Origin: Falsirhodobacter algicola
GTDB taxonomy: Bacteria; Pseudomonadota; Alphaproteobacteria; Rhodobacterales; Rhodobacteraceae
Assembly: GCF_018279165.1 (NCBI RefSeq)
Contig: NZ_CP047290.1
Coordinates: forward strand, 125,001 to 175,961
DNA length: 50,961 nucleotides
Direction of reading: 5' to 3'
Shown: in pieces, positions 1,811-39,245 of the stretch
How positions within the stretch are numbered: the stretch's first letter is position 1
Layout: each line of letters begins with the position of its first letter
Program-made: the position numbers and the translations under genes
Notes under the pieces: model-generated
Database searches by the model: none
What the model was told of the DNA's origin: nothing
Seen by the model: only the letters and a program-made list of their open reading frames with translations

Positions 1811-1887
<77 letters not shown>

Positions 1888-3540: not shown

Positions 3541-3573
3541 GGGGAAATCTCCAGTTCGCACGGGGCAGGGACG

Positions 3574-4216: not shown

Positions 4217-5131
4217 TCACTGCTGTGTGCTGAACGTCACGCGGGAAAGGGGCAACTCGGCCTCCAGCCGATCAGCGCAACAACGCCGCGAGCGCATCTT
4301 CAGCCCTGAATGCGGGTGGTTTTCGTTGTAGTCCTCGATCCAGCCTCCAATCAATCCGAGAACAGTGTAGGCGTCCGGCAATGGCGTCACCTGGACGTAA
4401 CCGCGCTTGAGGGTCTTCACAAAGGCCTCCGAGATGCCGTTGCTCTGAGGGCTTCGGACCGGCGTGAAGCAAGGCTTTAGACCAAGTTGGCGCGCGAAGA
4501 TCTGCGTGTCCTTGGCGATGTAAGGCGAACCGTTGTCGGACAGCATTTCGATGACTGAAGGCGCGCGGCATGTCCCAAAGCGACGCTCGACGGCTTCAAG
4601 CATGATGTCGCAGACGTCGGAACCGCTGATCCCGGCGTTCACGACGGCCCGCCAGGCGATGATCTCGCGGTCGTGCGCATCGATGATAAGGGCGCCACGG
4701 ACGATGTCTCCGCTCCAACAGGTGAACTCGAACCCGTCCGAGCACCAGCGCAGGTCAGAGCGCATGACGATGACCTTGCCGTCGTGAACATGCTCGGGAC
4801 GCTCCGTATACTCCCGCGCCAGCAGCAGGCTATGGGCCTGCATGATCCTGTAGACCCTTTTGTGATTGACCGGTGCCAGATCTTCCGACCGCAGCTGGCG
4901 GTTCAGGATCGCGGTGATGCGACGGTAGCCATCGGTGGGCCGCGCCGTCACCAGTGTGGCGATCCGCGGCACCAGCTCCGCGTCTTGCGCCTTGTGGTAG
5001 CGTCGGCGCGGCTTCGTCTTGCCCTTCACTCGATCGACCAGGCTCGAGCGGGCCACACCAAGCGTTTCTGCCACAACCTTTACCGCAAACCGTCCGTCAG
5101 CGGCGACCGCGCGTGCAAGGTCAGTTTTTTT
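4217..5131 (-). CDS. IS3-family transposase OrfB (reached by -1 frameshift)
   Basis: This is a DDE transposase with an integrase core: the HTH-like start LARAVAADGRFAVKVVAETL, then the first Asp near RWCSDGFEF, the second in MLSDNGSPY and the Glu in SNGISEAFVKTLKRGY. The frame runs without a stop from the A7 slippery run at 5125-5131, so the product is expected as an OrfAB fusion made by -1 slippage. The first internal ATG is at 5074. OrfB itself looks intact, but the upstream orfA has a premature stop, so the fusion cannot be made normally. Confidence 0.85.
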   Translation of the reverse strand, partial: KKTDLARAVAADGRFAVKVVAETLGVARSSLVDRVKGKTKPRRRYHKAQDAELVPRIATLVTARPTDGYRRITAILNRQLRSEDLAPVNHKRVYRIMQAHSLLLAREYTERPEHVHDGKVIVMRSDLRWCSDGFEFTCWSGDIVRGALIIDAHDREIIAWRAVVNAGISGSDVCDIMLEAVERRFGTCRAPSVIEMLSDNGSPYIAKDTQIFARQLGLKPCFTPVRSPQSNGISEAFVKTLKRGYVQVTPLPDAYTVLGLIGGWIEDYNENHPHSGLKMRSRRCCADRLEAELPLSRVTFSTQQ

Positions 5132-5659: not shown

Positions 5660-7669
5660 CTAATATGGTAGCTTCAGGCCTGCTTTCATGATCATCGGCG
5701 CAGCTTCGGCGAAGGTTAACGTAGAAAGCCGATCGCCGAAAAGGCTACGTAAATCTAACTCGAACTTTGCTTGGTCACGATATCGCTTCTCGTCGCCCGC
5801 CATATAGAGGGATTTCTCCATCATGACGCTCACCCGGCCATCGGCCTGATGATCGAAGACGATCACTTCGCCAGTGCACAGGTCGACCTTGGTGCGTTCT
5901 GAAAGCCTTGGGAGGGCGCTGGTGTCGAAGTCGGGGTAGACGAGAGCGGTCAACTTCCTCGACGCAAGGTGGACGCGGTAGATCGTGGTGTTGTCCAGAG
6001 AGCCGGCGAGAGCCTGCGCGACGCTGATATAGGTGCGCAGTCGCGGGGTGAGCTTCGGTAGATCGCGGGCGTGGACTTGGTACTTGTCGCCTGCCAGCTG
6101 GCCAATGCCGGCTGCGGCATGGGAGTGCGCGTCCTCCGCCAATGCTGCGCCATCACCGGCATCGAAGAGCATACGTCGGGCGACAGCCTCTGCGGCCGTG
6201 AGAGAACCAAAAATGGCACGAAGATCACGTTGAAGCGTCGGCGACAGCCGGCGGTAGGGGGCTCGTCCAGAGAAACTGCTCAGGGCGAAGAAGCGTCCGA
6301 TCTCATCGGCGCGACGGGCTGCCGCGATTGCCAAATTCTCGGCTGGGATCGCCGCAAAGGCATCTGCCAAAGCCATCTTGACGGACAAGCGAGCGCTTGC
6401 CAATTGTGATCGCAGATCCTTGGGGATCTCATCCGCATGTGGCACACGGCCGATCCTCAGGAAGAGGTTCACAAGGTCGTCCCGCACCGCCTCTAGGGTC
6501 TCCTGGCGCCAGGATGTTCCCGGCATGATGCTAGACGGCTGCCGCGGTACTGAGGGAATTGGCCGCGCCCCAATCATTCCCGTTTGTCGGCGCGACAGCA
6601 CGCGCTGCTCGAGTTCTTCATCGCGGAAGATGAAGAAAATGCCTGGACCCGCTGCTACCGGAGTCACTTCGAGCGTATCGAGCAGGAACGCCCGCAGTTC
6701 CGCCTGAGTATAGTAACGCTGAAAGGTTCCGCGAGAAGTTAGGAAGCCGTCGCCATGCGGCCGCTGGCCAGAGACCTCGCCCTTGCCTACTAGCATGACG
6801 GCGACGGCCAAGCATCGTTCGGCTAAAGCGAAGGCTCGGCGCAGCACGTCTCGTCGCTCGAGGGGATTTTCCACCACGTTCAATACAAAGCCGAGGTTCA
6901 CGATCGCCCTTGGTACCAGCGCGCTTCGTTCCGGTGCGAAATGTGGATCCCAGCCGACTGCGTCGATCCCTGCGGCACGAAGCGCCCGCACGTCGTCTCC
7001 ACGGCCGCAGCCGTAATCGAGGATACTCACGCCGCTCTTGAGAAGGCCCGCTGCATTTAGGGCGGCCATGGGTGCTGAAAGGCTATTCCGCCCGATCGCC
7101 GTCCTGTGCCGGACAACTTGAGGCATGGCGTTGAAAGAGGGGACATTTGAGATGTCCAGCTTCGTTACCTTGCTCGCGGGGTCATCGCGGGCAACGACAA
7201 GGTGGTCACGCACCTCAATACGCGCTTCGGTCAGAGCGGCGTTCCAGGCATCCTGCCGCCCTCGTTTCGTCATTTCGACGAACAGGCCTCTCCGTTCCAG
7301 CTCTCGGGTCAGCGCTACGTAGATATCACGTTCTGGGGCGTTGGGCGGCAGCAACAGTTCCTTGCGGTGGAGGATAGGAGGGTTCTTCCCATAACACCGC
7401 ACGGTCACAGCACCCGTCTTGAGGTCAACCCGGTAGCTTTCGTTAAGCACAGGGAAGGCGCTGTCTGCAAAGTCATCGTAGCTCAAAAGCGAGACGCCGC
7501 CGCCATTGGCGAAATCGACTTTGGCCACGTTCCAATTTCTGTGCGGCACGCGGCAGGCAGCCGCATCGATAAGCGCAGCATGTTCTGGAGGAAGATGGTC
7601 CAAGGCCGAGCGGTGCACATAGAGCGCCCCGCCCACCCTCTTACCTAAACCAGCCCCCTCTTTCTCCAT
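5660..7669 (-). CDS. phosphorothioation-associated putative DNA methyltransferase
   Basis: A 669-residue protein resembling the family named DNA phosphorothioation-associated putative methyltransferase. A class I SAM-binding motif I (LDYGCGRGDD) is at residues 217-226, with NLGFVLNVVENP near 258-269. The methyltransferase core is flanked by two similar ~90-residue segments (about 18-108 and 531-623) sharing DFA/DxSA-P-L-E--VDL-TG patterns. The start at 7669 was chosen because AGGGGAG lies just upstream; an earlier in-frame ATG at 8095 overlaps the end of sspH in another frame and gives a low-complexity, non-homologous leader. The gene is last in the operon, 44 nt after sspH. Its substrate is not known. 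Acting on DNA as part of the defence module is inference from context. Confidence 0.8.
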   Translation of the reverse strand: MEKEGAGLGKRVGGALYVHRSALDHLPPEHAALIDAAACRVPHRNWNVAKVDFANGGGVSLLSYDDFADSAFPVLNESYRVDLKTGAVTVRCYGKNPPILHRKELLLPPNAPERDIYVALTRELERRGLFVEMTKRGRQDAWNAALTEARIEVRDHLVVARDDPASKVTKLDISNVPSFNAMPQVVRHRTAIGRNSLSAPMAALNAAGLLKSGVSILDYGCGRGDDVRALRAAGIDAVGWDPHFAPERSALVPRAIVNLGFVLNVVENPLERRDVLRRAFALAERCLAVAVMLVGKGEVSGQRPHGDGFLTSRGTFQRYYTQAELRAFLLDTLEVTPVAAGPGIFFIFRDEELEQRVLSRRQTGMIGARPIPSVPRQPSSIMPGTSWRQETLEAVRDDLVNLFLRIGRVPHADEIPKDLRSQLASARLSVKMALADAFAAIPAENLAIAAARRADEIGRFFALSSFSGRAPYRRLSPTLQRDLRAIFGSLTAAEAVARRMLFDAGDGAALAEDAHSHAAAGIGQLAGDKYQVHARDLPKLTPRLRTYISVAQALAGSLDNTTIYRVHLASRKLTALVYPDFDTSALPRLSERTKVDLCTGEVIVFDHQADGRVSVMMEKSLYMAGDEKRYRDQAKFELDLRSLFGDRLSTLTFAEAAPMIMKAGLKLPY

Positions 7670-7713
7670 GAGCTCCCCTAAGCAATGCACGGCGTGGGCC
7701 GTATGAGCGCCTA

Positions 7714-10700
7714 TCAGCTTCTCCGCGATGCCCAATAGCTCTTCGCTGCCTGCGCGAGGCGTTGCACGTCCTCCGTCTCGGCGAAGGGCACCTGTACTAC
7801 GAAGAACTCTTGGCCAGGAGGCAGCTGCTGGTTGGCCAGCATACAGGCAAGATGACCTTTTCCTAATAGCTTTTCTGCGCCGCCAACCCCAAGAACCATC
7901 CGCGAACCCGTACCATTCTGTACTTTCAGGCAAAGACGGTTGCCCATGTTGTCGCGCAACCGCCCAGGCACAGCGTCTGCATCGGCCCGCTGGGTTATCA
8001 GGATCAGGTGGATGCCCGCCGCCCGTGCCTTCATGCCGAGGTTGGCCACCGAGGAGAGCACGACCTCCTGATACTCTTTCTCCTGCGCCATCCAAGCCCC
8101 AAGCTCGTCATGCACGAGAAAAATCCGCGACATCCGCTGCTCTAGCGGCACCCTTCGATTGTACTCCGCGATATTGGCGGCACCGACCGAGGCGAGCTTC
8201 TCGTACCGTGAGTCCATCTGGCGTACGAGATCCTCAAGGATCGCCTTCGCGGCGCTCATCTCGGTGACGATCGGCGCTTTCATCTGCGGGGCGCCTTCCA
8301 GCCAGGTGAAATCCACACCCTTTTTGGGGTCGACAACAATCAACTCGACCTGCTCTGGGTCGTTGAACGCGATCAATTGCAGAAGGAGCCCTTGGGTCAG
8401 GATCCCTTTGCCGCTGCCTGTCTCGCCTGCAATCAACGTGTGCGGGCCGTGCACCTCGTAATCAGCAAAGGGCTCGGCAAGGTTCAGATACAGGAGTCGG
8501 TCCTCGTCTTCGCGTGCCCCGAGGATGAAAGAGGTGTGCTGCCCTGGGTCACGATCAGGCCAGAGGGCGCTTAGCCATGTCGAGGCAAGCGGCACCTTGG
8601 CCCTTTTCTCCCGCGTCACGAAGACCGAGATCCGGCCGCGCCCTGGCCGCACGTCTGCAACCTCGATGCCGTAAGTCGTCAGCAACTCACTCGTGCGCCG
8701 CTCTATCCTGTCGACGGTCAGTGAAGGATGGCCACGGAAGGCAATGAGTGCGCCGTTGGGCGTCAGCCGCGGCTTGGGGTCGGCGAACTGAGCTTGCATG
8801 CTGAAGTGGCTCAACGCCCGTTGGGTTTCTATCGCGATCTTATCGGCCCAAGCAAGGGAGTCGGGGTCGGTGACCGCTCCGCGCTCAATCGCAGCCATGT
8901 CCCGAAGGACAGCATAGACCGGAGGAGGCAAGAAACAGGGCGGCTCGGGTGCCTGGTCTTCTTCCGCCATGTCGGTTGTCACAGCCTCAGGCTCCGTCTT
9001 CGGGTCCTCGGCGGCAGTATCGGCGTCGGCTGCGCTCCGCGACGGAAGAGGCCTTCCGTCGAGTAGTTCCCCCGAGGTGTTGAAGTTTGCACCCACAACC
9101 GCCGTAGTGGTCTCTCGCGGTTGGACCGGCTGTGACGTTTGGGCCTCACCGGAGCCATACCAGACGATATCGCCGAGGCCCTCACGCTGGGGCAGATCAC
9201 CCTCCATCGTACCCTGCAGCGTCTGGCGGATCGCTGGAGTGGTCAACACATGGTGACGCAGATACGGGCGATCCGAATCCGCCTCGCACTTCCAGACGAC
9301 CCCATGATCGTCATGCAGACATACGACAACCTCGCCGCTGATCTGGAACGATACCTCGCCGGCGCTCAAGGCATCGAAGAACGCAGCACGCAGGACTGGG
9401 TCTGGCAGGCGTTCCGTCACCCCGTCCCGGTTAACTAGGAGATCGGCCAACCGTGCGCAGGCGGCCTCCCGAGAAATAGCGTCGTCGTTGTCGATGAACA
9501 GGCTGGTCAGGCGATCCACCGTGTCTCGCACCTGTTGCTGCGCTTCCTTGATCGTGGCCAGTTCGGCAGTCTTCTCGATGAATTTGGCTTCACCGACCTG
9601 CAGAAACACCCGGAACGCCCCATCATCATGGTCGATGATAACGGCAATGGCATCGGCGACACGTCCCTTCTCGGACATGAACCAGCCGCGATAATCGTCG
9701 AGCGAGACCCAGATCGGCGCATTATTCATCGTGCCCTTCAGGGCGCCTTCCATCCAGGCGCGCATGACCGCGAGGCCGATCATCTCGCGCGAAGCATTGG
9801 CGTATCGGGCCGCTGACAGGACCTTTCGTCCTGAAATCCTCAGGACGTCACGGATGACAACGCCCGAAAGCGTCTGCGCATCCGGCGCACCGATGCCACA
9901 GGCAGCGATAAGATCGTCACGGATGTTGCGCTTCAGCCGGTCGTCCACCTTACCGGCGCTAATAATCACCCGTCCGTCGGCACCCGGGACAGAGATATCG
10001 CTAATGATCTGAACGCCGCAGCGCTCAAATAGAGTTCGACTGGCCACCTTGTCATAAGTAATCACCCATTCCGCAAACTGGTGTGCCCGGCGGACCAGCT
10101 CGCTCACCTTGGCATCCTCGAACTGGATCTGCCGGATCAGCACCCCGTGGAACCCCTCCGGCAGGAAGCCTTTCGCCAGCTCGTAGATCAAGTCCTGATA
10201 GTGTCCGACAGCACGGGGCGGTCTAGGGAGCGTCAGGTATACGCCGACACCGGACGCATCGGTCTCAGTCATGCGGCGACGCGGGCGCCGGGCCACGGCA
10301 GGGTCGAAGGTGGCGGCAAGTTCTTGCGAGCCGCCAGCTTCCTCCACCCAAACCGGATCGGCGTGATGGCTGATCACATCGTGAAGGAAGACCAAATCGA
10401 GGTCCCGCACCTCGCTCTCCGCGCCATCCGAGGCACGGTTGGATCTGACGTCCACCCGCAGCCTAGACAGAAATCCCCGTGCCGTCTCGCTGATGTTCTC
10501 TGCCGCCAGGCGCACGTTCTGGTTGCGATAAATCTTGCGCATCCGGTCCTGATCACGGTGCGTGATAACGAGGTCGCAGCGCAGATCGGATTGCCGGTGC
10601 AAACGTTTGGCCATTTCCCGAGCCACTTCGCGCGGCAAGGTATGGCTCTCCGAGTCGAAGATTGATGCTGAAAGGTTGGTTGCTTCGTGGGGGTGGACGT

Positions 10701-13146: not shown

Positions 13147-13150
13147 CCCA

Positions 13151-14722
13151 CTACCTGTACGGGTTCGTTACGAAAGCACAGTCATCCGAAAGCCGCTGCG
13201 TCAGCGCGAGCCGCGTCATGCGCGCCTCAAGGGCTGCAAGGTTCGCCTCGTAGCGCTCAACATGGATCCGCCCGAACGCCTTTCGGGCCTCTTCGGGGCC
13301 GATGACCAGGCCGTAGCGCCGGTAGAGTTCGGCCACAAAGTCCCGTAATTCGATGGTACGACTGACGTTTGCGAGGATGAGAGCGAAGAGCATCCCGTCG
13401 TCGAGAGCGAACCATGGCCCGACCCTTTGTCGCGAAGTCGCTGCTCCCGACGCCTTTGCCAGCGGCAAGAGGTACCTGTAGATGTTGTTCTTGTCGCGCT
13501 GCATCGCATGTTCGATGAAGGCTTCTAGTTGCTGCGCCGGCGTCGCGGCATTCCCGCGCTGGCCGTCGCCCTTGGTAAAGCCGAACCTCTCCTGCAGCGC
13601 CTGCTTGGCAAGGCCGGGATCGCTGCGCTCCACCGCCATCTTCCAGCGATTGCAGCCCCCAAGCACCCGCTCAATAAAAGCCCTTACAGCACGATTGGCG
13701 GCATCCCTATGCAGGTTCAGGTGGACTTTGGCTTCCTCGCGGAGTTGCTGGTTGCCCCCGTCGGTCAGGTCGGCCACGATCGGCACTGGCCGGGATGCCC
13801 CGACTTCATCCTGTGCCCTCTCCGCGAGATAGCCGATGAGGTTGAGCCCCGTGATGCGGAAGAGCGGCTCAAATAGGTGACCCTCTGGCAGGCGATCGCA
13901 CATCAGGACGTTCAGCCAATCCTCGGCGAGGCGATCATAGGCAGGCAGCGTTAGATGCGGCAAATATCCGATCTGAGTATTTGACGCTCCGGTGTCACTA
14001 GGATCGGACAGGGCGTGCGCGATCCGGTTCATCGGATCATTTTCGCTGAGCAGTCGCTTACTGATCAGCCCGCTCACCTCGGAGGCCCGCGATGAGCGGT
14101 TCAGCATCAAATAGACGAGTTCGCCGCCACGGCCAAAGAAGCGTCGGTCGGCGGACCAGCTGCCGCGCGCCTCTCGCATGTCGGTGCAAATCATGTCCGG
14201 TCCGGTTACGGCGAGGAAGCGCGAGGTCCACCGTCGATTGTGCATCACATCGAGTTCGCGCGACTGCAGCAGCCGGACCGCTTGGCGCAGAGCGTTTATA
14301 TCTCGGGAAAATCTGTCGTCGAGATAGGCGAAGGCGTCGTGCACCGTCCCGGCGCCGGGCTCGCGCTGCCCCTCCCCGAATTGCGTGTTGACCCGTTTCT
14401 TCCATTCCTGCCATTTCTCATGATCCGGAATGGCGGTGTCCTCGATCACCTGTTCGAGATGCCGATCCTGAAAGAGCAGGAACCGCATCTTGCGCCGGTG
14501 GGGCAGAGCATAGTGGAAAGTCTCATGCGCGTCCGGCTTTGGCTGAACACTGCCCAGAGCGGTTGCAGCGCAGACCGCCAAGGTCTCCAGAACAATCATA
14601 AACGGCTCTTGCTCCTGCATGAAGCGGTGGCCGTGAATGAGCTCCTGCACGCGCATGTCGGAGCTGTCGAGGACGTTCGGCGGCGGCGGCAGTCTGATCG
14701 TGGACAAGCTGTTCATCACCAT
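13151..14722 (-). CDS. sspG: SspG/DptG-like restriction component
   Basis: A 523-residue protein placed between the F- and H-like genes, the fixed position of DptG in phosphorothioate-dependent restriction clusters; length and order support the call more than any motif. It is mainly hydrophilic and predicted helical, with no nuclease or P-loop motif visible. The ATG overlaps the end of sspF by 7 nt (ATGGTGA), implying coupled translation. A second in-frame ATG lies two codons later (MVMNS). Function within the F-G-H complex is unknown from sequence alone. Confidence 0.72.
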   Translation of the reverse strand: MVMNSLSTIRLPPPPNVLDSSDMRVQELIHGHRFMQEQEPFMIVLETLAVCAATALGSVQPKPDAHETFHYALPHRRKMRFLLFQDRHLEQVIEDTAIPDHEKWQEWKKRVNTQFGEGQREPGAGTVHDAFAYLDDRFSRDINALRQAVRLLQSRELDVMHNRRWTSRFLAVTGPDMICTDMREARGSWSADRRFFGRGGELVYLMLNRSSRASEVSGLISKRLLSENDPMNRIAHALSDPSDTGASNTQIGYLPHLTLPAYDRLAEDWLNVLMCDRLPEGHLFEPLFRITGLNLIGYLAERAQDEVGASRPVPIVADLTDGGNQQLREEAKVHLNLHRDAANRAVRAFIERVLGGCNRWKMAVERSDPGLAKQALQERFGFTKGDGQRGNAATPAQQLEAFIEHAMQRDKNNIYRYLLPLAKASGAATSRQRVGPWFALDDGMLFALILANVSRTIELRDFVAELYRRYGLVIGPEEARKAFGRIHVERYEANLAALEARMTRLALTQRLSDDCAFVTNPYR

Positions 14723-16527
14723 GAATCTCCCTCGGCCATGATGGCAACTCCATGCTCCTGCAGGTTGCCGTCTACCATCTGCACCTCCTTAGGCATTGGT
14801 GCAATCCCGTTGAACGCCTGCGGGACCGCGGTCGCAACCCGGAGTTGGAACCGCTCGACCTCACGCTGGCATTCGGAGGAAAAGCTGGCCGGCAGCGCAC
14901 CGTCGGCGATCCGAAGCAGGCACTCAACGAGAGTCGGACGTAGTGCAAGGATCACTGTGAGATCCTCCCGCCCCTGGGTGATAAGGTGGATCTCTGGTGG
15001 CCGTCCGTTGTCAGAGGGACCCGTGCGGTGCTTGCCCGGCAGATGGAACGTCACCGTGCTCGTCCCGCCGGCGCGAGGACGGCCGGCGTGCTGTACCAAA
15101 AGGGGGATCTCGCTACCCATGTAGACACCGGACGGCGCCGTTACCCACAGCCGGTCATCTGTAATGGTCATCTCGCCGGTCATCATTCGGTTCAACCCGC
15201 GCAGCAGCCGGCGGGCAATCGACTGCGGCATGCCTAGGCCGAGGAGGCCGTCGACCATGGTAACGTAGTCCGAGCCATGTTTGAACACGGAGAGGTTCCA
15301 TGGGCTGCGGCGCGGGTTCGACGTAACATCGGCACTCTGTGGATCAAGGGCGAAGAACAGCCGCCGCCGCTGATCGACCATAGCGCGCTGGAAATCACTT
15401 GAATGGCGAGCCGGGTCACCCCGATACATCTCGCGGACGGACGTGAAGATGCGCTCCCCATACCAAGGGCAGTCGGGCAGGCTGTCGTTGCCCCACAACA
15501 GGCCGTGGTCGAAAGTATTGTTGGTCTCGAAGCCGATCTGAAACTCACTGAGCACGGTGAACGCGCCATACTGCCGGCGCTCGCGCTCAGTCAGGTTTAC
15601 CCCGAACGCGTTAGCGTAGGGGTTGGTCGATCCATAGTCGTTCTCCCGCGCGCGCCTCTGCGCCTTCTGACACGTCAGGAGGGTCGAGCCCTGTCGTGCA
15701 TCCCCGAGCAGGATATTGACGGTCAGCAGGATCAGCTGCCGGATCGACAGATGCCGCCCGTCTGCGGCCGCCATGCGGATCATGTCCTTCAGGCGAGCGC
15801 GCATCGATGCGGGGTCCTTCCGCCGCAGGATGTCGCGGTTGCAAAGGATTGGGCATGGATTATCGCTGTCCGCGGTCACCGGACAGCCATCGCACGATCC
15901 CCACCCGGCATGTTCCACCACACCGTCGAGGATCTGGTCAATAAGGTGACGATGCGACTGGCGCGACATATTGATCAGCAAGAACTGTCCGTCTGGATCG
16001 TCCCGCTCGTCGCTGCGTAGCATCTCCGCAATTCGGTCGTGAAGGGCAGCCTCATCGCGATCGCGGAAGAACTTCAGCAGATGTCCGTCGTTGACGCAGA
16101 TGACGAAGACATCGGAGCTCTCGCCGGTCAGTGCAGCCATGATGTCGGGGAAGATGCGGGTCTTCTCGGCCTCGTTGAGTTCACTTAGGTCCTTGATGAA
16201 CCGAACCGATCGGCCCGAAGGTAAGGGCTGGGGCAGAGAATAAATCTTTTGCGTGTTGGTCCAAACGCGTGCCTCGCCGGACAGCGCCTGTGCCACTTTC
16301 CGCGCGGTGTAGGTCTTACCGTCTCCGGCCGTCCCGGTAAGAAACACGCACTTAGGTTCGGCAGACTGCAGCATCCCGACCAGTTCGGCCGTGAGCGGTT
16401 GGTCAATCTGTAGGGCCGCACAGCCGGTCCTTGCGGCCGCCTCTACAACAAACTCGTCGTAGAGGTTGTTCGAGGATGCCTGAGGGCCATAGGAGGCCAA
16501 GAATTCAACCAGGTTATTGCTCGTCAT
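14716..16527 (-). CDS. sspF: SspF/DptF-like P-loop restriction component
   Basis: A 603-residue protein with an N-terminal P-loop, GTAGDGKT, at residues 65-72, as in the DptF family. A four-cysteine cluster (C212, C215, C225, C229; CDGC ... CPILC) looks metal-binding. The start at 16527 is preferred to the upstream ATG at 16587 because the latter lies inside sspD and adds a leader without similarity; the chosen start is 7 nt after the sspD stop. It is expected to work with SspG and SspH in restricting unmodified DNA (known for the family; inferred here). Confidence 0.8.
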   Translation of the reverse strand: MTSNNLVEFLASYGPQASSNNLYDEFVVEAAARTGCAALQIDQPLTAELVGMLQSAEPKCVFLTGTAGDGKTYTARKVAQALSGEARVWTNTQKIYSLPQPLPSGRSVRFIKDLSELNEAEKTRIFPDIMAALTGESSDVFVICVNDGHLLKFFRDRDEAALHDRIAEMLRSDERDDPDGQFLLINMSRQSHRHLIDQILDGVVEHAGWGSCDGCPVTADSDNPCPILCNRDILRRKDPASMRARLKDMIRMAAADGRHLSIRQLILLTVNILLGDARQGSTLLTCQKAQRRARENDYGSTNPYANAFGVNLTERERRQYGAFTVLSEFQIGFETNNTFDHGLLWGNDSLPDCPWYGERIFTSVREMYRGDPARHSSDFQRAMVDQRRRLFFALDPQSADVTSNPRRSPWNLSVFKHGSDYVTMVDGLLGLGMPQSIARRLLRGLNRMMTGEMTITDDRLWVTAPSGVYMGSEIPLLVQHAGRPRAGGTSTVTFHLPGKHRTGPSDNGRPPEIHLITQGREDLTVILALRPTLVECLLRIADGALPASFSSECQREVERFQLRVATAVPQAFNGIAPMPKEVQMVDGNLQEHGVAIMAEGDSW

Positions 16528-16534
16528 CGCGGCC

Positions 16535-17410
16535 TCACAGGTGGCAGATGGCGCATCCGTCTTCCGGCTCGCCAATGGGGGTTGCATAGCGTTCGCGGAG
16601 CTTCTCTAGCTCCTCGAGCGACCGTGTCTGCGACCATGTAAAGCACCGCCCGTTTGCCTTGGGCGCCTCGTATGTCTTCGCCGCTTCGAACAACTCGGGA
16701 TGGCGCTCCTTCAACCCTTGCCATTCCCCGACTTGCTGGTAGAAACAGAAGTAGCACCCCGACCGCGACCGCCAGTCGTAATAGGGCGGCAGCCCAAGCC
16801 CGCAGCCCAGCAGCAACTCCCGGACATCGTCAAGGCCGAAGCCGATGTCCTTGAGCGGATAGACCGGCACGATGTTATTGCGGTTGGACAGCACAACCGG
16901 TTTGGCGCGCCCCGTCTCCACCCCATCGTCGTCACTCGCCTGAGCCGGTTTGGCCGCAGCGCCGCGAAAGCCTTCCCGGTTCTCGTCGGCGCGGATGCCA
17001 ATGTAGGAATAGGCCTCGTCGCCGCCGACGAAATGCTCAAACGGCTTGATCTTCAGCATGCGCGTGCACCAGCGCGCCTGCGGGTTAGGCAGGAAGCCCG
17101 AGTAGACCTCGTTCAGCAGCACATCGAAGGGCGACCGCCGCCCGGCTTTCGAGCGGACCTGCAACTCGGGCAGGTCGAGTGCCGTTAGCCGGTTAACCTG
17201 CACCCCGAAGATCGCTTCGAACCGGCGCAGATAGCTGTAAGTCTCAGGCAACTCGGCCCCGGTGTCCGTGAACACAAACTCCAACGGCAGGTCACCGTGA
17301 TGCTCGAGCATGTAGACCGCCAGCGCGGTAGAGTCCTTGCCGCCACTCAGCGGAATGATATGACGTCGTGACCGATCCTGCACCGCGTCAGAAAGACTAG
17401 TTGGTGTCAT
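16535..17410 (-). CDS. sspD: SspD-like phosphoadenosine-phosphosulfate-reductase-family sulfurtransferase
   Basis: A 291-residue ATP-pyrophosphatase with the PP-loop SGGKDS at residues 22-27 and FTDTGAELPETYSYL after it. Cysteines at 115 (CTRMLK), 219 and 222 (CYFC), 256, and 286 and 289 (CAIC at the C-terminus) could bind an Fe-S cluster or carry sulfur. It is clearly shorter than DndC of the double-strand Dnd system (about 450-500 residues), fitting SspD. In Ssp systems this protein works with SspA, SspB and SspC to replace a backbone oxygen by sulfur. Its ATG overlaps the sspC stop (ATGA, 17407-17410). Confidence 0.82.
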   Translation of the reverse strand: MTPTSLSDAVQDRSRRHIIPLSGGKDSTALAVYMLEHHGDLPLEFVFTDTGAELPETYSYLRRFEAIFGVQVNRLTALDLPELQVRSKAGRRSPFDVLLNEVYSGFLPNPQARWCTRMLKIKPFEHFVGGDEAYSYIGIRADENREGFRGAAAKPAQASDDDGVETGRAKPVVLSNRNNIVPVYPLKDIGFGLDDVRELLLGCGLGLPPYYDWRSRSGCYFCFYQQVGEWQGLKERHPELFEAAKTYEAPKANGRCFTWSQTRSLEELEKLRERYATPIGEPEDGCAICHL

Positions 17411-20400
17411 GACGCCCCCTTATAAATTTCATCCAAATACTTGATCAGGCGCGCATTCCCGATCTTGGCACCGTAAACGTCAAAGATTGTGGCCAGCTTG
17501 TTGCGCAGGAACGGCTCGAATGCATCGCTGCCGTCCGCGTGCTCTAGGACCGCGTCTTCGATCCGCACGACAGCCTTCTCAAGTCGATCACGAAAGATGT
17601 CGGCCGTCCTGTCGTCCCAGGCCTCGAAGCCCTCGCCGCAGAGAATACCACTCAATTGGGTGACAAAACCTCGCTCGCCCCTGGGTACGTTGACGGCAGT
17701 GCGGGCCCGTGCGAGCACACCTCTCGCCTCGTGATCGAGGGCGCGTACCGCTTCGTCGGCAAGAGGGACGCAGGCTGCCCACTTAGATGCGGCGTCAAGC
17801 AGAGAGCGCGGGCTACCTCTGAGGCGGCGGCAGAAAATCGCTGCGGCGACGTCAACCGCGCGGTCGGCAAATGCAGAAGATACGCTTTCGATCTGACGCA
17901 CTGCTGTCGCGACCCCCTCGATCGTCGCCGCGTTCAAGGCCGGTTCTCCGAGCACCCGAGGAAGTTCCCGGAACAGGAAGTCTACGGGATCGAAGGCCTT
18001 CTTGCGCAACAAAGGTTGGAGAAGATCTGCGTTCTCACCCAAGCCTCGAGTGCTCAGTGCCGTGGGTGGAAGGCCGCCTCGCCATTCCAACAGCGCATCG
18101 TAAAAGCCTCTCAGAAGGTCAGGCTCCTGCGGATCAAGGTCTCCCACGAGACATCGGATCATCTTCTCAAGGTTGCGCGACTGGCTTCGCGTAAGCGCAG
18201 GCACCTCCAGCTCGAAGCGCTTTGGCTCCTCGCACATCTTTTCGATCAGGCTCGGCTGGACATCATCAACATACCGCGCGCGGCCGTCGACGACTTCCCG
18301 TAGAGCCAAGGCCCTGCCAAATGCGACCATACCCGCCGTCAGCAGGAGCGGCAGCACACCCTCCCGAAGCCCGATAGGCGGAGCTGTCAGTCGATCTATA
18401 AGGTCCTCTACGCTCTTGGGTTGATCAGAGGGATCGACGAAGAACCGCTCGATCTCCCTCCACACATGCTGCATGGAGAGGTCACCTAGCTCTGAGGGCA
18501 CGCGCCACCGCCAAGCGCCATCGCTGCTGGCGTAGAGGCCGGTACGCTCAAGGACGGTGCGGTAGAGCGAGGCGTCGGCCGATGTGGCGCCCCCATAGCC
18601 GAGTGCGCGGATACCGGTGCGTTCAATAATCGCAAGCATGCAGCGTTTGCGGGCCGAACGCGTGACCGCGGAGACCTTGCGCCGCACGACCTGTTCGTTC
18701 GCGATTTTTGGGGTCTGGGGGAACCGGGTTTCGAAGAGGCGGGAGAGGATCTCGCCCAGGGTACCGCCCTCGGCGAAGCTGTGGAGTGTCGGGCCAGACA
18801 GCCAGACGACTTCGCCACGATCGGGGTTCATCAGCCGCTCGAGGCTCTGGCGCAGCGCGGCCTCGGCCTCGGCCTTCAACTCTTTCAGCTCGCGTTCGAC
18901 CAGCGGGTCGGTGGCGAGCAGCTCGCGGCGGTCGAGAAGCACCTCCAGCGCTAAGAGTTCGGCGAGGATCGAGCCGACCTCGGCTGAGCGACGGGGCAGC
19001 GCCAGGATGAGATGGGGCGGCAGGGCGCGGGCGAGTTCCACAAGATCAGGCCGGTCCGCAGTAGCGTCGATGACGAGGGCCACCAGCGCATCCTCGGCGT
19101 CGGCCTGTTTCCGCAGGGCCTCCAACCCCGACGCCGAGGTTAGGTCGCTGGCGCGCACGAAGCGGGCCTGGGCGAAGCGGGTGATCCCGCGGGCGTGATT
19201 GTAGGGCGGCGCAGTGTAGGAATCAGGCGCGAACATTTGCTCTAGCGCCGCCACTGGGTCGCTGTCCATCGCAAGCCGCGCAGCCTCTTCGGCCACCATC
19301 TGCCCGAGATCGATATCGGCCCCGTGCCAAATCGATATGTCATCCAAACGGCGACGATGGAGGAGCAATTTGCGCGCCACAAGCGCCTCGATAACGACCT
19401 CAATGTCGTCGGGCGGCGTGTCGGTGCCCTCTGCCACAGCATAGACCAGCCGCGAGCGCGGCAGCTTCAGTCGCTCCGCGCTGCGTCCGAGCTGCAGGAG
19501 CGCCGCAGTCTTGACGACCTGACGTTCAAGGTCGGTCTCGGTACGCGACAGCGCCGTCTCGGCCTCTACGAAGCGGCGATGGGTGCCACCAGGGCCAGTG
19601 TCCGAGCGCATCGCCGGGGCGAAGAAGTCATAAAGCGCATCGACTCCCAGCGAGGTGCTGGGCTCGTCCGCCGCCGCAACATCGGCAAGGAATCGGAACA
19701 TCGTCCTTTCGGCCTGCGCGACCTGCGCCGCGAGGCTTGGCAAGACCTGGAGCGCTGCCGGCGTTAGTGGAGCGGTGCGAACGAGGATTTCTGCTAGCCG
19801 TGCATCATCTGTGACATCCGAGAAAAAGCCTGCGGCTCGGGCGCGTCCTATGGCTGCTGCGTCAGGCGCGGACCGGCACCCGTTCAGAGCCTCGGCAAGC
19901 ATCTCCAACGCGTCCACACCGTCGTCGATCAGACTCAGCGTGTCGAACCTACCCTCGATTTTCTTCCAGGCAGACTGGGTGGTCTCAGATGCCCTGCGAG
20001 TGTAGTGATACACACCCTGGTGCATGAGCGTGGTCAGCGTGACCCGGGGCTCCGACCGTCGTACGGCCCATTCGGCCAAATCCTGTACAGCCAACAGATC
20101 CTCTGGGCGGCCCTCGCGGACTAGGGTCTCCAGATGCTGGCCGAACTCGTCCCAGACGATGGCGATCCGCGCAATGCTGCCTTGGCGGGCCTTCCGTAGG
20201 ATCTCAGTCAGAACCTTGTCCAGCGGACCGCTCTTTACCCCCGCGCGTTCGGACAGCACGGCAGCAAGGTCAGGACAGGCGCCGTGCAGGAGCAGCACAA
20301 GTGTAGGTCCGGAGGCCTCGGCCGCAGCCGCAGCGAGATCTGGATCTACTAGGACGATACGCGCGCGCAGGTCACGGGCCGTGGATGGTTCCCCTGCAAT

Positions 20401-20592
20401 CAGGGTGATCCCGGCGAGCGCCGCGAGCGATTTTCCAGCACCGTACGGTGCGACCACATGGGTGGCCGTGCTCCGCTCCAGCCCACAAACGGCACGCACC
20501 ACCTGCAGCGTCTTGCGCGTGGGGCGGTAGGCCGCGATCACGTCCTCTCGCGTGCGGTCGTCCGCGATATTGATCGAGCGCAGGACGTTCAT
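17407..20592 (-). CDS. sspC: SspC-like large P-loop ATPase
   Basis: A 1061-residue protein with Walker A APYGAGKS at 48-55 and a Walker-B-like IAIVWDEF at 143-150. The rest is long and helical (Glu/Arg/Leu-rich, around residues 550-650) with no second catalytic motif noticed. It resembles SspC and, more distantly, the BrxC-type ATPases. The start at 20592 gives an ATGA overlap with sspB; the in-frame ATG at 20640 lies inside sspB and was rejected. The position between the DUF4007 gene and the sulfurtransferase gene is the canonical sspB-C-D order. Confidence 0.8.
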   Translation of the reverse strand: MNVLRSINIADDRTREDVIAAYRPTRKTLQVVRAVCGLERSTATHVVAPYGAGKSLAALAGITLIAGEPSTARDLRARIVLVDPDLAAAAAEASGPTLVLLLHGACPDLAAVLSERAGVKSGPLDKVLTEILRKARQGSIARIAIVWDEFGQHLETLVREGRPEDLLAVQDLAEWAVRRSEPRVTLTTLMHQGVYHYTRRASETTQSAWKKIEGRFDTLSLIDDGVDALEMLAEALNGCRSAPDAAAIGRARAAGFFSDVTDDARLAEILVRTAPLTPAALQVLPSLAAQVAQAERTMFRFLADVAAADEPSTSLGVDALYDFFAPAMRSDTGPGGTHRRFVEAETALSRTETDLERQVVKTAALLQLGRSAERLKLPRSRLVYAVAEGTDTPPDDIEVVIEALVARKLLLHRRRLDDISIWHGADIDLGQMVAEEAARLAMDSDPVAALEQMFAPDSYTAPPYNHARGITRFAQARFVRASDLTSASGLEALRKQADAEDALVALVIDATADRPDLVELARALPPHLILALPRRSAEVGSILAELLALEVLLDRRELLATDPLVERELKELKAEAEAALRQSLERLMNPDRGEVVWLSGPTLHSFAEGGTLGEILSRLFETRFPQTPKIANEQVVRRKVSAVTRSARKRCMLAIIERTGIRALGYGGATSADASLYRTVLERTGLYASSDGAWRWRVPSELGDLSMQHVWREIERFFVDPSDQPKSVEDLIDRLTAPPIGLREGVLPLLLTAGMVAFGRALALREVVDGRARYVDDVQPSLIEKMCEEPKRFELEVPALTRSQSRNLEKMIRCLVGDLDPQEPDLLRGFYDALLEWRGGLPPTALSTRGLGENADLLQPLLRKKAFDPVDFLFRELPRVLGEPALNAATIEGVATAVRQIESVSSAFADRAVDVAAAIFCRRLRGSPRSLLDAASKWAACVPLADEAVRALDHEARGVLARARTAVNVPRGERGFVTQLSGILCGEGFEAWDDRTADIFRDRLEKAVVRIEDAVLEHADGSDAFEPFLRNKLATIFDVYGAKIGNARLIKYLDEIYKGAS

Positions 20593-21491
20593 GCCGCCTC
20601 CCGTGCCGCGCCAATGCGGTCGTAGAAGCGGCGCGCCCACGTCGCCGCAGTCGCGCTTGGCAGGAAAATAGAGCGCTCCCCAGCTAGCGTGCGGACACTC
20701 AGGACGGGTGCCCCTAGGTCCCGCTCCCCACTGACCGCAAGTTCGAGCAAGGCCTCACGCGACCGGCCCAGCATTGCCGCAGCGCGTGTCACTGACGCGC
20801 TGCCGATGCTGATGTCCTGCAACACACCCTCACGCAGGTCGTTGCACGAGTGGCTCATGTGGAGCGCCGACAGGACCAGGCCGAGGGCCTCCGGCGGAGT
20901 TGGCGTCGGCTCGGAGCGCTCGAACCGGTCCGCTCCACGCAAATGCCGCCACAGGTCAAGCCGATGGAATGGCGAACCAAGATTGTCCTCTGGGTCGATC
21001 CGCGGCCGCGGCACCGGCACAGCCCAAGTCTGCATCACCGCAGCCACCTCGCGCTGTATCGTTTTGATCGCCGGCGCCTTGCCACGGGCCGGCGAGAGTT
21101 CGCGCAGAAGCGTTTCGGTCAGTATGGTCCTGTCGCAGCGCTCCGGCCGTCGCGGGGCAAAGAACCAAGGCAATGACGTCTTCATCCCGCAGGTCATGGC
21201 ACTGGCATGTACCAGCCACCACGTGCCCAGACGGACCATGTAGGGGTCATGCTCCACCACCGCGGTGCCGAGAGGCGTTAGTTCCAGAGGGCCATTTCGG
21301 CTAGCCCGTATCGCAAGACCCGTGGCGTCGAGCCACCAACCGATCGACTTAGCCATATTGCGGCCAACCCCCAGGCGGTCGGCTGTCTCAGGAGCCGAGA
21401 ACACGCCCGCGCCATCGTCGTGCAGGTGCAGAAGGCCCTTCGTCAACCAGCCCGGACGGGGATAGAAGGTTTCATGTCCGCCAAGCTTCAT
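20589..21491 (-). CDS. sspB: SspB-like DUF4007 protein (putative DNA nickase)
   Basis: A 300-residue protein with the DUF4007 opening GGHETFYPRPGWLTKG (residues 4-19) and the conserved DPEDNLGSPF (166-175). A winged-helix-like segment (APETADRLGVGRNMAKSIGWWL) follows the first motif. In characterised Ssp systems the DUF4007 subunit nicks one strand to allow sulfur insertion; nickase activity here is by homology only. Its ATG overlaps the sspA stop by four bases (ATGA), and its own stop overlaps the sspC start in the same way. Confidence 0.82.
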   Translation of the reverse strand: MKLGGHETFYPRPGWLTKGLLHLHDDGAGVFSAPETADRLGVGRNMAKSIGWWLDATGLAIRASRNGPLELTPLGTAVVEHDPYMVRLGTWWLVHASAMTCGMKTSLPWFFAPRRPERCDRTILTETLLRELSPARGKAPAIKTIQREVAAVMQTWAVPVPRPRIDPEDNLGSPFHRLDLWRHLRGADRFERSEPTPTPPEALGLVLSALHMSHSCNDLREGVLQDISIGSASVTRAAAMLGRSREALLELAVSGERDLGAPVLSVRTLAGERSIFLPSATAATWARRFYDRIGAAREAA

Positions 21492-22633
21492 GCCAGACCA
21501 CCCATTACTTCGCGGAGAAACAGCGTCTCCTCTGCCATAATTTGCGCCGCAATTTCGACATCCGCTTCCATTGTGTCGACGGACACGGCTACGCGGAGGC
21601 TGGCAAAGGCCTCCTCGTGTGACCGTCCCATCGCCAAGAGCGTCCGCGATGGCTCTGGTTGCCCAGAGGAACAGGCCGAAACCTGTGAGCAGAGGATGCC
21701 GCGCGTCTCAAGCCGGGCCACCAGCGCCATGCCATCCACGCCGGGAATGGTCAGATTGCTCGTGTTCGGCACGCGCGGCGCATCCGCGCCATTGATGCGC
21801 ACCTCGGGGAGCGCCGCCGACACCTGAGCCTCGAACTGATCTCGCAATTGCGCCATCTGTGCAATCGCCCCGGACAGATTTCGATGGCGGAATTCGCAGG
21901 CGATGCCAAGGCCGACGATGCCCGGTACATTCAGTGTGCCGCCTCTCCAACCACGTTCTTGCCCGCCACCAACCGCAATTTCCACCGGCGGCAACCCTTC
22001 TGGCTGCACCAATACACCAATTCCTTTCGGCCCGTGCAGCTTGTGACCAGACAAGGTCAGATAAGCCGCATCGTCTGCCTTCAACGCAACCCGCCCTACC
22101 GCTTGAGAGCCATCGACCAGACAGACCGCGCCATACCGCTCTGCCACGGCCTTGATCGCTGCCAGATCCTGCAGCACGCCGGTCTCGCCATTGGCCCAAG
22201 CGAGAGCGATGAGTTTCGGCCCATTGATGCTGTTTAGCGCTGTCTCGAGTGCATCCAGCCGCCAGCGTCCGGCCTCATCGAGCTGCACCAACCGCACCAA
22301 TTGTGGCTTATGCTGAAAATAAAGCCCCGCCACCGCGGGATGCTCTGCGGTCGAGGTTACCAGCGCCGCCCCCAGCTTGGAATGGTGCCGTAACACCGCT
22401 TCGTTTGCTTCGGTCGCGCCAGAAGTGAACACAACTCGCTCGGCCCGCACACCGAGAAACCCTGCCACCTGTTCACGCGATGTTGCCACTGTCCGTGCCA
22501 CCGTCTGCCCAAACCCATGGACGCTTGACGGGTTTGCCCAATCGGTTTCCAACGCCCGCATTACGGCTGCTACAACCTCCGGCGCAGGTCGTGTGGTAGC
22601 GTTATTGTCGAGATAAACCATAGATGAATGCAT
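21488..22633 (-). CDS. sspA: cysteine desulfurase (SspA/DndA/IscS family)
   Basis: A 381-residue PLP enzyme. The N-terminus is MVYLDNNATT, the PLP lysine is in SGHKLHGPKG (K198) and the catalytic persulfide cysteine is in SACSSGQPEPS (C321). It releases sulfur from cysteine and passes it on, here presumably to SspD. It heads the eight-gene operon. Two in-frame ATGs (22633 and 22621) are possible; residue numbers use the first, but the second starts exactly where family members start. A ~68-bp gap separates it from the upstream regulator remnant, with no strong promoter recognised. Confidence 0.9.
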   Translation of the reverse strand: MHSSMVYLDNNATTRPAPEVVAAVMRALETDWANPSSVHGFGQTVARTVATSREQVAGFLGVRAERVVFTSGATEANEAVLRHHSKLGAALVTSTAEHPAVAGLYFQHKPQLVRLVQLDEAGRWRLDALETALNSINGPKLIALAWANGETGVLQDLAAIKAVAERYGAVCLVDGSQAVGRVALKADDAAYLTLSGHKLHGPKGIGVLVQPEGLPPVEIAVGGGQERGWRGGTLNVPGIVGLGIACEFRHRNLSGAIAQMAQLRDQFEAQVSAALPEVRINGADAPRVPNTSNLTIPGVDGMALVARLETRGILCSQVSACSSGQPEPSRTLLAMGRSHEEAFASLRVAVSVDTMEADVEIAAQIMAEETLFLREVMGGLA

Positions 22634-24160: not shown

Positions 24161-24793
24161 ATGTCCACAGATTTCCTCCCGATTGTCCGGCCGGATCATC
24201 CGGCGTGGAACAAGGGCCGCATCATAGGGCAGAAACGGCCGCTGTTGCCCAAGCATGTTTGGTCGATCCGGGTTCGTCTTGAAATGTCCGGCAACAAGCG
24301 TGATCTCGCGCTGTTCAACATGGCCATCGACATCAAACTGAGGGGGTGTGACCTTGTTTGCCTGAAGGTTCGAGAAGTCTTTGTTGCTGGCAGGGCCAAA
24401 GATCGCGCGTCGGTTACGCAGAGCAAGACCGGAAAACCGGTTCGCTTCGAGATCACCGAGACCACGCGACAGTCGCTCGAGCGTTGGATCATGGATCCAG
24501 AGATGATCTGCAGCGATTATCTATGGCCGAGCCGCCTACATGCCAGCGAGCATCCTTCTACCCGCCAGTATGCCCGCATCCTTCGCGGATGGGTCCTGTC
24601 GATCGGTCTCGAGCCGAGCGGTTATGGCACGCATTCGATGCGGCGGACGAAAGTCGCTCAGCTCTACAAGAAGACAGGAAATCTCAGGGCCGTTCAGCTT
24701 CTGTTAGGCCACACCAAGATGGACAGCACTGTGCGTTATCTGGGTGTCGATCTGGATGACGCGTTGGCGCCCTCTGAAGGAGTTGACCTGTAA
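24161..24793 (+). CDS. short tyrosine recombinase (phage-integrase family)
   Basis: A 210-residue integrase that is essentially only a catalytic domain. The conserved set is visible: Arg61 (LRGCDL), Lys89 (SKTGK), His158 and Arg161 (HSMRRTK), His184 (LLGHTKMD) and the nucleophile Tyr193 (RYLGV). The usual core-binding domain is reduced to ~50 residues; this short form is common in proteobacterial mobile elements. It faces rightward toward the Fic gene, inside the right end of the island, and may be the enzyme acting on the tRNA-derived repeat or a separate element's resolvase. Confidence 0.88.
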   Translation: MSTDFLPIVRPDHPAWNKGRIIGQKRPLLPKHVWSIRVRLEMSGNKRDLALFNMAIDIKLRGCDLVCLKVREVFVAGRAKDRASVTQSKTGKPVRFEITETTRQSLERWIMDPEMICSDYLWPSRLHASEHPSTRQYARILRGWVLSIGLEPSGYGTHSMRRTKVAQLYKKTGNLRAVQLLLGHTKMDSTVRYLGVDLDDALAPSEGVDL

Positions 24794-27531: not shown

Positions 27532-27544
27532 GCTCCCGCAACCA
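27532..27544 (+). repeat. right attachment-site direct repeat (attR-like)
   Basis: GCTCCCGCAACCA is identical to the 3' end of the initiator tRNA at 1875-1887. It is followed 12 nt later by a Rho-independent terminator, the arrangement expected for the original chromosomal flank of the tRNA gene. Confidence 0.75.
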
Positions 27545-38772: not shown

Positions 38773-38791
38773 GGGGTTCTCCTTTCGAAGA

Positions 38792-39214: not shown

Positions 39215-39245
39215 GCCAAGGGGTCCTTCATGCAGATGGAAATGG

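What the first reader, a model, noticed from the sequence alone, without database searches (positions are those of the whole stretch)
5660..22633. SspABCD-SspFGH-type phosphorothioation defence cassette carrying an extra methyltransferase-like gene
Seen: eight leftward genes in the order cysteine desulfurase, DUF4007, P-loop ATPase, PAPS-reductase-like, DptF-like, DptG-like, DptH-like, phosphorothioation-associated methyltransferase. Known: SspABCD makes single-strand phosphorothioate; DptFGH-type proteins restrict DNA lacking it, and an SspABCD-SspFGH pairing has been described. Inference: the added methyltransferase makes this a possible dual backbone-and-base marking system. There is no SspE gene in view, and DndC-length, DndD and DndE genes are absent.
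Basis: partly seen in the sequence, partly recalled or inferred. Interest (0 to 1): 0.8.

Follow-up and report, generated by a model that had tools for sequence, protein, structure and literature searches.

The report
Sulfur-DNA defence cassette with extra methyltransferase
An apparently intact bacterial anti-phage cassette of a kind that marks its own DNA with sulfur and attacks unmarked DNA carries an eighth gene, a methyltransferase of unknown chemistry whose closest relatives mostly occur in genomes with sulfur-DNA systems of either known type.

Summary
Window 5660-22633 (minus strand) is one compact operon: SspA, B, C, D, F, G, H and a TIGR04096 'DNA phosphorothioation-associated putative methyltransferase'. 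It is an SspABCD-SspFGH cassette, not BREX-4 or Dnd. The same eight-gene order recurs on five alphaproteobacterial plasmids.

The 'dual backbone-and-base marking' inference is not supported. The methyltransferase lacks DNA-base-MTase motifs (0 of 94 homologous ORFs). Its predicted fold resembles small-molecule, tRNA and thiol MTases. It is bookended by a duplicated domain with no Pfam or PDB fold match, found among 385 genomes only in the three with the MTase.

A phosphorothioate sulfurtransferase was found in 67 of 80 genomes with the closest homologues, and in both other carriers of a class sample (2 of 2, p = 0.0018). Partners have switched between Ssp and Dnd, at least 7 times on a quick tree. 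SspFGH shows no clear link (7/32 versus 4/28 plasmids, p = 0.52). So the enzyme probably works with phosphorothioation itself.

Verdict: known cassette plus a recurrent accessory of unknown chemistry. Boldest surviving reading: it methylates the phosphorothioate.

The parts
21488..22633 (-). SspA, cysteine desulfurase (sulfur donor); ACSSG cysteine loop and PLP-lysine motif GHK present
   Evidence: PADLOC SspA 320 bits, DndA 310; Pfam Aminotran_5 E 1.5e-52; motifs read from the sequence, their roles recalled
20589..21491 (-). SspB, DUF4007 protein (DNA-binding winged-helix subunit, according to passages of PMC10853773 and PMC12839542)
   Evidence: PADLOC SspB 210 bits; Pfam DUF4007 E 2.8e-35
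17407..20592 (-). SspC, P-loop ATPase (Walker A GAGKS); probable start 20592, ORF open to 20640
   Evidence: PADLOC SspC 438 bits, BrxC 158; start context
16535..17410 (-). SspD, PAPS-reductase-like sulfurtransferase with SGGKDS loop, SGCYFC and C-terminal CAIC; compact form
   Evidence: PADLOC SspD 280 bits; 53-60% identical to SspD of the five plasmids with the same eight-gene order, below 48% to the other 55 records; C-termini
14716..16527 (-). SspF, P-loop protein of the restriction module; ORF open to 16587
   Evidence: PADLOC SspF 475 bits
13151..14722 (-). SspG, restriction module
   Evidence: PADLOC SspG 444 bits
7714..13146 (-). SspH, 1810 aa, C-terminal FtsK/SpoIIIE translocase domain, restriction module
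   Evidence: PADLOC SspH 1127 bits; Pfam FtsK_SpoIIIE E 1.3e-25
5660..7669 (-). PT-associated putative methyltransferase (TIGR04096), probable start ATG 7669
   Evidence: NCBIfam TIGR04096 458 bits, cut-off 150; ribosome-binding-like AGGGGAG upstream of 7669; dN/dS 0.10
7163..7654 (-). N-terminal copy of the duplicated domain, with the conserved NPPILHRKE motif
   Evidence: TIGR04096 positions 321-476 match here too, 83 bits; N/C similarity E 2e-7; model pLDDT 89.6, pTM 0.82; no PDB fold match, best E 0.98
6581..7123 (-). Class I SAM-methyltransferase domain: LDYGCGRGDD, GWDPH, NLGFVLNVVENP, TFQRYY
   Evidence: alignments A1/A2; model pLDDT 88.5; Foldseek
5765..6103 (-). C-terminal copy of the duplicated domain, NPPILHRKE motif lost
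   Evidence: profile of the N-domain, E 3.3e-9
1875..1887 (+). 3' end of tRNA-Met, probable left attachment site of an island
   Evidence: 13-bp exact repeat at 27532-27544; 0 of 200 Markov-shuffled sequences reach 13 (longest 12)
27532..27544 (+). probable right attachment site (repeat of the tRNA 3' end)

Best explanation
The locus is an apparently intact SspABCD-SspFGH phosphorothioate (PT) restriction-modification cassette. SspA supplies sulfur; SspD, with SspB (DNA recognition) and SspC (ATPase), puts PT into one strand of host DNA; SspFGH damages DNA that lacks PT. These steps are inferred from homology to the system tested by others. The eighth gene is a class I SAM-dependent methyltransferase carried on a pair of recognition-like domains that were seen only with this enzyme. 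It most likely works on, or with, PT-marked DNA: a second chemical step after sulfur insertion, common to the Ssp and Dnd forms of PT, rather than a separate sequence-specific base mark or a part of the SspFGH effector. Shown here: gene content, order, selection, PT linkage, partner switching and lack of DNA-base-MTase hallmarks. Inferred: that its substrate is PT-DNA, and what is methylated.
For: Gene identities. Same eight-gene order in five other replicons. Purifying selection like that on SspD/F/G/H. PT link: SspD or DndC within the fetched locus for 37 of the 80 closest homologues and elsewhere in the genome for 30 of the other 43. In 385 class genomes, the 3 with the MTase over cut-off are all among the 18 with SspD or DndC; one of the 3 is the window's own genome, and without it 2 of 2 fall among 17 of 384, p = 0.0018. 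18 of 25 plasmids with a near-full-length MTase carry a listed SspD or DndC match. Partner switching: 11 ssp/dnd changes on a quick tree, 7 forced by branches with SH-aLRT of 95 or more. Not FGH-specific: MTase in 7 of 32 SspD plasmids with SspG and 4 of 28 without. Duplicated domain found only in MTase carriers. FF-93 IscS-SspBCD-SspFGH works in E. coli, and the paper's one use of the word methyltransferase concerns ordinary R-M (PMC8092258).
Against: No biochemical result. The MTase is missing from most PT systems seen (49 of 60 SspD plasmids; 15 of 18 PT genomes in the class sample), so it is optional. 13 of 80 MTase genomes show no SspD or DndC (12 MAGs and Allochromatium warmingii), and 7 of 25 MTase plasmids show none on the record. 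Partner type is more clustered on the tree than in shuffles (11 changes against a mean of 14.4; 14 of 500 shuffles as low for ssp), so switching is limited. The fold class is shared by enzymes that act on small molecules, tRNA and proteins, so DNA need not be the substrate. The 80 loci are those nearest the query alignment, not a random sample.
Confidence: 0.55

Rival explanations
1. One reading: the methyltransferase adds a sequence-specific base methyl mark, so the cassette carries two independent self-marks (backbone and base).
For: It sits in the modification-restriction operon with a 44-bp gap. It carries two flanking domains that could read DNA. Cytosine methylase genes stand in place of PT genes in many systems with the DndDE core (PMC10853773, abstract and passages).
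Against: No DNA methylase Pfam match. 0 of 94 homologous ORFs have DPPY- or PCQ-type motifs. No named DNA base MTase in the 50 listed fold matches. Switching between Ssp and Dnd partners, whose target sequences differ according to PMC8092258.
Confidence: 0.18
2. The methyltransferase acts on something other than DNA (an Ssp protein, a tRNA, or a small thiol or persulfide made during sulfur trafficking).
For: Best fold matches include XrdM, METTL6, ToxA, ChlM and the bacillithiol methyltransferase NmbA. Pfam gives only the general Methyltransf_23, below its cut-off.
Against: Fold matches are weak (best E 2.7e-4, TM by target 0.52 or less). The large flanking domains are unlike small-molecule MTases (recalled). 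The link is to PT systems of two different scanning types rather than to one protein partner.
Confidence: 0.2
3. The methyltransferase is a neighbour carried along in a defence island, with no role in the Ssp system.
For: It is absent from 25 of 32 SspG plasmids, and the characterised FF-93 system was rebuilt without one.
Against: Same place in six cassettes (window plus five plasmids); dN/dS 0.10; PT sulfurtransferase in 67 of 80 homologue genomes.
Confidence: 0.06
4. The cassette is a BREX type 4 or Dnd-FGH system.
For: SspC, SspD and SspB are homologous to BREX-4 components (PMC12839542, passages).
Against: Best profiles are Ssp for each of the seven core genes. No PglZ or BrxL match among the eight proteins. 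No DndC in the genome.
Confidence: 0.01

Closest known systems
SspABCD-SspFGH of Vibrio anguillarum FF-93 (PMC8092258; passages and one section read)
   Same: PT modification genes plus the three-gene SspFGH module that damages PT-free DNA; no SspE
   Different: FF-93 uses IscS with sspBCD; the paper's main text uses the word methyltransferase once, about ordinary R-M. The window has its own SspA and the TIGR04096 gene directly after SspH
Azospirillum sp. TSA2s plasmid p3, Microvirga ossetica, Methylobacterium indicum pVL1_1, Sphingomonas sp. gentR and Rhizobium leguminosarum pRlX5 cassettes
   Same: order A-B-C-D-F-G-H-methyltransferase
   Different: in gentR the N-terminal domain is a separate overlapping ORF; in M. 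ossetica an annotated hypothetical gene lies between SspH and the methyltransferase; in R. leguminosarum about 600 bp separate them
TIGR04096 DNA phosphorothioation-associated putative methyltransferase
   Same: 458 bits, three times the cut-off
   Different: the model covers one MTase domain and one C-terminal domain; the window protein has a second copy of that domain at its N-terminus
Rhodococcus qingshengii RL1 dndABCDE with the same putative methyltransferase (PMC8416521, one passage read)
   Same: gene of that name after a PT modification operon
   Different: Dnd type; in the passage seen it is listed without comment on function

Membership tests
SspABCD-SspFGH PT defence system | sspBCD with a cysteine desulfurase | tested here: met
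   PADLOC SspA-D 210-438 bits
SspABCD-SspFGH PT defence system | adjacent sspFGH | tested here: met
   PADLOC SspF/G/H 444-1127 bits
SspABCD-SspFGH PT defence system | single-stranded PT in host DNA; SspFGH toxic without PT | not testable with these tools
   needs LC-MS/MS and gene deletion
TIGR04096 PT-associated methyltransferase | score over curated cut-off | tested here: met
   458 bits, cut-off 150
TIGR04096 PT-associated methyltransferase | PT modification genes in the same genome | tested here: met
   own cassette; 67 of 80 homologue genomes, 13 without
DNA base methyltransferase (m6A, m4C, m5C) | DNA methylase Pfam family | tested here: not met
   only Methyltransf_23, 24 bits against cut-off 27
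DNA base methyltransferase (m6A, m4C, m5C) | catalytic [DNS]PP[YFW] or PCQ motif in the MTase domain (motifs recalled) | tested here: not met
   0 of 94 ORFs, 92 distinct
BREX type 4 | BrxP-type PAPS reductase, PglZ and BrxL | tested here: not met
   SspD 280 bits against BrxP 17; no PglZ or BrxL match among the eight proteins
DndABCDE-FGH | DndC, and DptF/G/H restriction genes | tested here: not met
   no DndC in the genome; no DptF/G/H or DndF/G/H model listed for SspF, SspG or SspH; DndD and DndE were not sought genome-wide
SspE-bearing Ssp system | SspE | tested here: not met
   one GmrSD_N protein over cut-off in the genome, classed as Orf5 (575 bits) rather than SspE (68.5 bits)

The most novel reading that the evidence does not exclude
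The methyltransferase methylates the phosphorothioate itself, on sulfur. That would give a neutral S-methyl-phosphorothioate as a new kind of backbone mark, or a route by which PT is hydrolysed back to phosphate (a PT eraser). It would explain use with both Ssp and Dnd PT, the lack of base-MTase motifs, and two thiol- or sulfur-chemistry enzymes (XrdM, NmbA; XrdM's chemistry is recalled) among the best, though weak, fold matches.
Probability: 0.12. Interest if true: 0.92.

Novelty: new variant of a known kind. Interest (0 to 1): 0.5.

Why it matters
In the papers seen here, phosphorothioate systems are treated as a sulfur-insertion module plus a restriction or effector module. A conserved third element that accompanies the modification module in both Ssp and Dnd types, is under similar selection, and has no assigned substrate suggests that natural PT-DNA may undergo a further processing step. 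The question is directly testable by mass spectrometry with a one-gene deletion. The flanking domain may also be an undescribed fold specific to these enzymes.

Tried and rejected
Considered and rejected: BREX type 4 and Dnd-FGH; SspE elsewhere in the genome; a conventional base MTase; an association specific to SspFGH (7/32 against 4/28, p = 0.52); the C-terminal CxxC of SspD as special to this cassette (it ends most of the MTase-linked SspD ORFs printed; SspD without an MTase was not compared).

Led nowhere: PDB sequence searches with the MTase, N-domain and C-extension profiles (nothing convincing); viral fold search (mostly unnamed proteins and general MTases); promoter and terminator scan (at or below chance); literature on the fold match XrdM (the five papers listed hold no XrdM). 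A resemblance of the ~170-aa C-terminal extension of many homologues (not in the window) to DD-peptidases of the M15 type is my recollection only; Pfam (one protein) and PDB gave no support.

Profiles used inside the Python box were built from the window's and L021's proteins, with bit-score thresholds of my own. The window's own genome is one of the 3 carriers in the class sample; counted in, p would be 8.6e-5, left out it is 0.0018, and the latter is what I rely on. At a loose cut (E <= 1e-10) the SspD and DndC models also ring in 3 of 14 control genomes each, which is why only E < 1e-60 (SspD) or over cut-off (DndC) was counted. DndD and DndE were not sought genome-wide.
Full report
1. The observation. 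The eight leftward ORFs are as described. Profile searches name them SspA, SspB, SspC, SspD, SspF, SspG, SspH and a TIGR04096 methyltransferase. SspA/B, B/C and C/D overlap by 4 bases, F/G by 7, G/H are 4 bases apart, and 44 bases separate SspH from the methyltransferase start at 7669, which has a good ribosome-binding sequence. This is one operon. The NTPase motifs (SspC GAGKS, SspF GDGKT, SspH GSGKG) and cysteine motifs (SspA ACSSG, SspD CxxC pairs) are intact as read from the sequence; their roles are recalled.

2. Setting. The window opens with the end of a 23S rRNA gene, a 5S gene and tRNA-Met (CAT) at 1811-1887, probably the initiator. A serine recombinase split into two ORFs (1894-2757 and 2884-3561) and a transposase gene that looks IS3-like (4217-5074) follow. 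Right of the cassette are a phage-integrase-like ORF (24161-24793), a SoFic-type Fic protein (24818-26077) and an rRNA methyltransferase of the Methyltransf_10 family. The last 13 bases of the tRNA recur exactly at 27532-27544. None of 200 Markov-shuffled sequences gives a match this long, though the longest reached 12. I read this as a probable island integrated at the tRNA gene, about 25.7 kb long.

3. Which system. Each of the seven core genes has its best PADLOC match in the Ssp family. BREX-4 and Dnd are excluded by relative scores and by missing partners. No SspE was found. The closest characterised system is SspABCD-SspFGH of V. anguillarum FF-93 (PMC8092258; passages, one section). There SspBCD with IscS inserts PT at CCA, and SspFGH damages PT-free DNA, is toxic without PT, and blocks phage replication in E. 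coli. The main text uses the word methyltransferase once, about ordinary R-M.

4. How common is the eight-gene form. Of 32 plasmid records with SspG, 7 also have the methyltransferase. In five of these the order is A-B-C-D-F-G-H-MTase (L019, L116, L117, L118, L120). In L116 an annotated hypothetical gene lies between SspH and the MTase, and in L120 about 600 bp. Four more loci show D-F-G-H-MTase up to the edge of what was fetched (L024, L056, L057, L071), and L029 F-G-H-MTase with a 1-kb gap. The window's SspD is 53-60% identical to SspD of exactly those five plasmids and below 48% to the other 55 SspD records. The eight-gene cassette therefore seems to travel as a unit, mainly in Alphaproteobacteria.

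5. The methyltransferase follows PT, not SspFGH. Of the 80 nearest homologue loci (531 confirmed), 37 hold SspD (22) or DndC (15) within the fetched stretch. Of the other 43 genomes, 25 have a strong SspD (E < 1e-60) and 7 a DndC over cut-off; the union is 30. So 67 of 80 have a PT sulfurtransferase. The 13 without are 12 MAGs and Allochromatium warmingii. In 385 genomes drawn from the class, TIGR04096 is over cut-off in 3, with 9 more showing only short, weak matches; SspD is present in 10 and DndC in 8, with no overlap between these two. All 3 fall among these 18. One of the 3 is the window's own genome; without it, 2 of 2 fall among 17 of 384 (p = 0.0018). 15 of the 18 PT genomes lack the MTase. 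On plasmids, 18 of 25 near-full-length MTase records carry SspD or DndC on the same record; four of the seven without are Synechocystis records with the match at the same coordinates, and the 11 shorter partial matches were dropped. Seen from the other side, 11 of 60 SspD records, and 7 of the 60 listed DndC matches (69 in all, the weaker ones probably general PAPS reductases), carry the MTase. SspFGH makes no clear difference (7/32 against 4/28, p = 0.52). At least two of SspF/G/H are in view in 10 of the 80 loci, and of DptF/G/H in 2. A quick tree of 90 homologues (33 ssp, 17 dnd, 40 unlabelled) needs 11 changes of partner type, 7 of them forced by branches with SH-aLRT of 95 or more. Shuffled labels average 14.4, with 14 of 500 as low as 11, so the labels are also somewhat clustered.

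6. Anatomy. The model (pLDDT 88.5, pTM 0.52, so the domains are clear but their arrangement is not) shows a domain, a class I MTase, a helical linker and a second copy of the first domain. The two copies are related (E 2e-7; 83 bits to TIGR04096 positions 321-476). In some relatives the N-terminal copy is a separate, overlapping ORF (L118, L015 and, unless that is a frameshift, L024), so it can act as its own chain. The motif NPP[IV]LHRKE (pattern as) occurs once per locus, before the MTase core, in 82 of 96 loci counted (L001 and L104 are one gene) and never in both copies. L004, which has no N-copy, keeps it in the C-copy. 13 of 96 lack the exact pattern, among them L107-L109, which are short distant relatives. 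The N-domain alone folds confidently (pLDDT 89.6, pTM 0.82) but has no PDB fold match (best E 0.98) and no Pfam match. Among 385 class genomes it occurs only in the 3 that have the MTase, the window's own included.

7. What chemistry. The MTase domain has a SAM-binding LDYGCGRGDD, GWDPH, NLGFVLNV (86 of 94) and TFQ[KR][YF][YF] (94 of 94). None of 94 (92 distinct) has a DPPY- or PCQ-type motif in the 180 residues after motif I. Fold matches are XrdM, METTL6, ToxA, ChlM, CypM and NmbA, with modest scores. This points away from a standard base methylase and leaves the substrate open. Because the gene is shared by Ssp and Dnd systems, which differ in target sequence and in single- versus double-stranded PT (PMC8092258), a substrate common to both is the simplest guess: the PT group or its immediate surroundings. 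That step is inference.

8. A suggestive variant. In Thiothrix lacustris (L110, L061) the order is SspA-B-C-D-F'-G'-AbiEi/AbiEii-H'-SspB'-SspC'-MTase. A second, divergent SspB/SspC pair stands directly before the MTase. The PADLOC scores of the primed genes are low (F' 99, G' 62, B' 30, C' 63 bits; H' matches DndH best, 184 bits). L045 and L101 show the same H'-B'-C'-MTase end, and L042 and L077 a convergent version. This would fit an MTase that is delivered to DNA by its own SspB/SspC-like pair.

9. Literature. A search for TIGR04096 or 'phosphorothioation-associated' returned one paper, of which I saw one passage listing the gene. Other searches were (listings). In PMC10853773 none of the 8 places with methyltransferase or MTase concerns this gene (other passages). 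The main text of PMC11931770 has no 'methyltransferase', that of PMC12839542 no 'phosphorothioation-associated', TIGR04096 or SspF/G/H, and the 3 places in PMC9927239 concern other matters. Only open-licence papers were searched.

10. Verdict. The cassette is real, apparently intact and of a known kind. The extra gene is a named but, in what I searched, uncharacterised PT accessory. The new points are the recurrent eight-gene unit, the partner switching, the unmatched bookend domain and the second B'/C' pair in relatives. Leaving the own genome out of the class test weakened that one figure; I kept the odds, because the 67 of 80 against a class rate of 18 of 385 carries the point.

Noticed in passing
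window 1875-27544: Probable genomic island integrated at tRNA-Met (13-bp repeat of the tRNA 3' end at 27532-27544), next to an rRNA operon; holds a serine recombinase split into two ORFs, a transposase gene, the cassette, an integrase-like ORF and a SoFic-type Fic gene.
   Followed up: partly
L110:1-20000 and L061:1-12520: Thiothrix lacustris has an enlarged cassette with AbiEi/AbiEii genes between SspG' and SspH', and a second SspB'/SspC' pair directly before the methyltransferase.
   Followed up: partly
L038:11897-12514 and L001:1397-1993: About half of the homologues (47 of 96 by pattern) carry a conserved ~170-aa C-terminal extension with invariant His and Asp residues that is a separate gene in L001; no Pfam or PDB match.
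   Followed up: partly
L107:9470-11523 and L108:5888-7941: Viral contigs encode a ParB-N domain fused to this MTase core, followed by a PAPS-reductase-like gene, a possible phage-borne counterpart (Pfam and PADLOC run on L107 only).
   Followed up: no
L004 / L113:2746-4233: A homologue without the N-terminal domain, beside an integrase, keeps the NPPILHRKE motif in its C-terminal domain; DndC lies about 14 kb away on the same contig.
   Followed up: partly
window 37480-50210: Minus-strand housekeeping-type genes at the contig end: FAD oxidoreductase, ornithine cyclodeaminase-like protein, amino-acid permease and a group of glycosyltransferases.
   Followed up: no
L114:505-2205: A GmrSD-like (DUF262-type) protein of 566 aa elsewhere in the window's genome, best PADLOC match 'Orf5'.
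   Followed up: no
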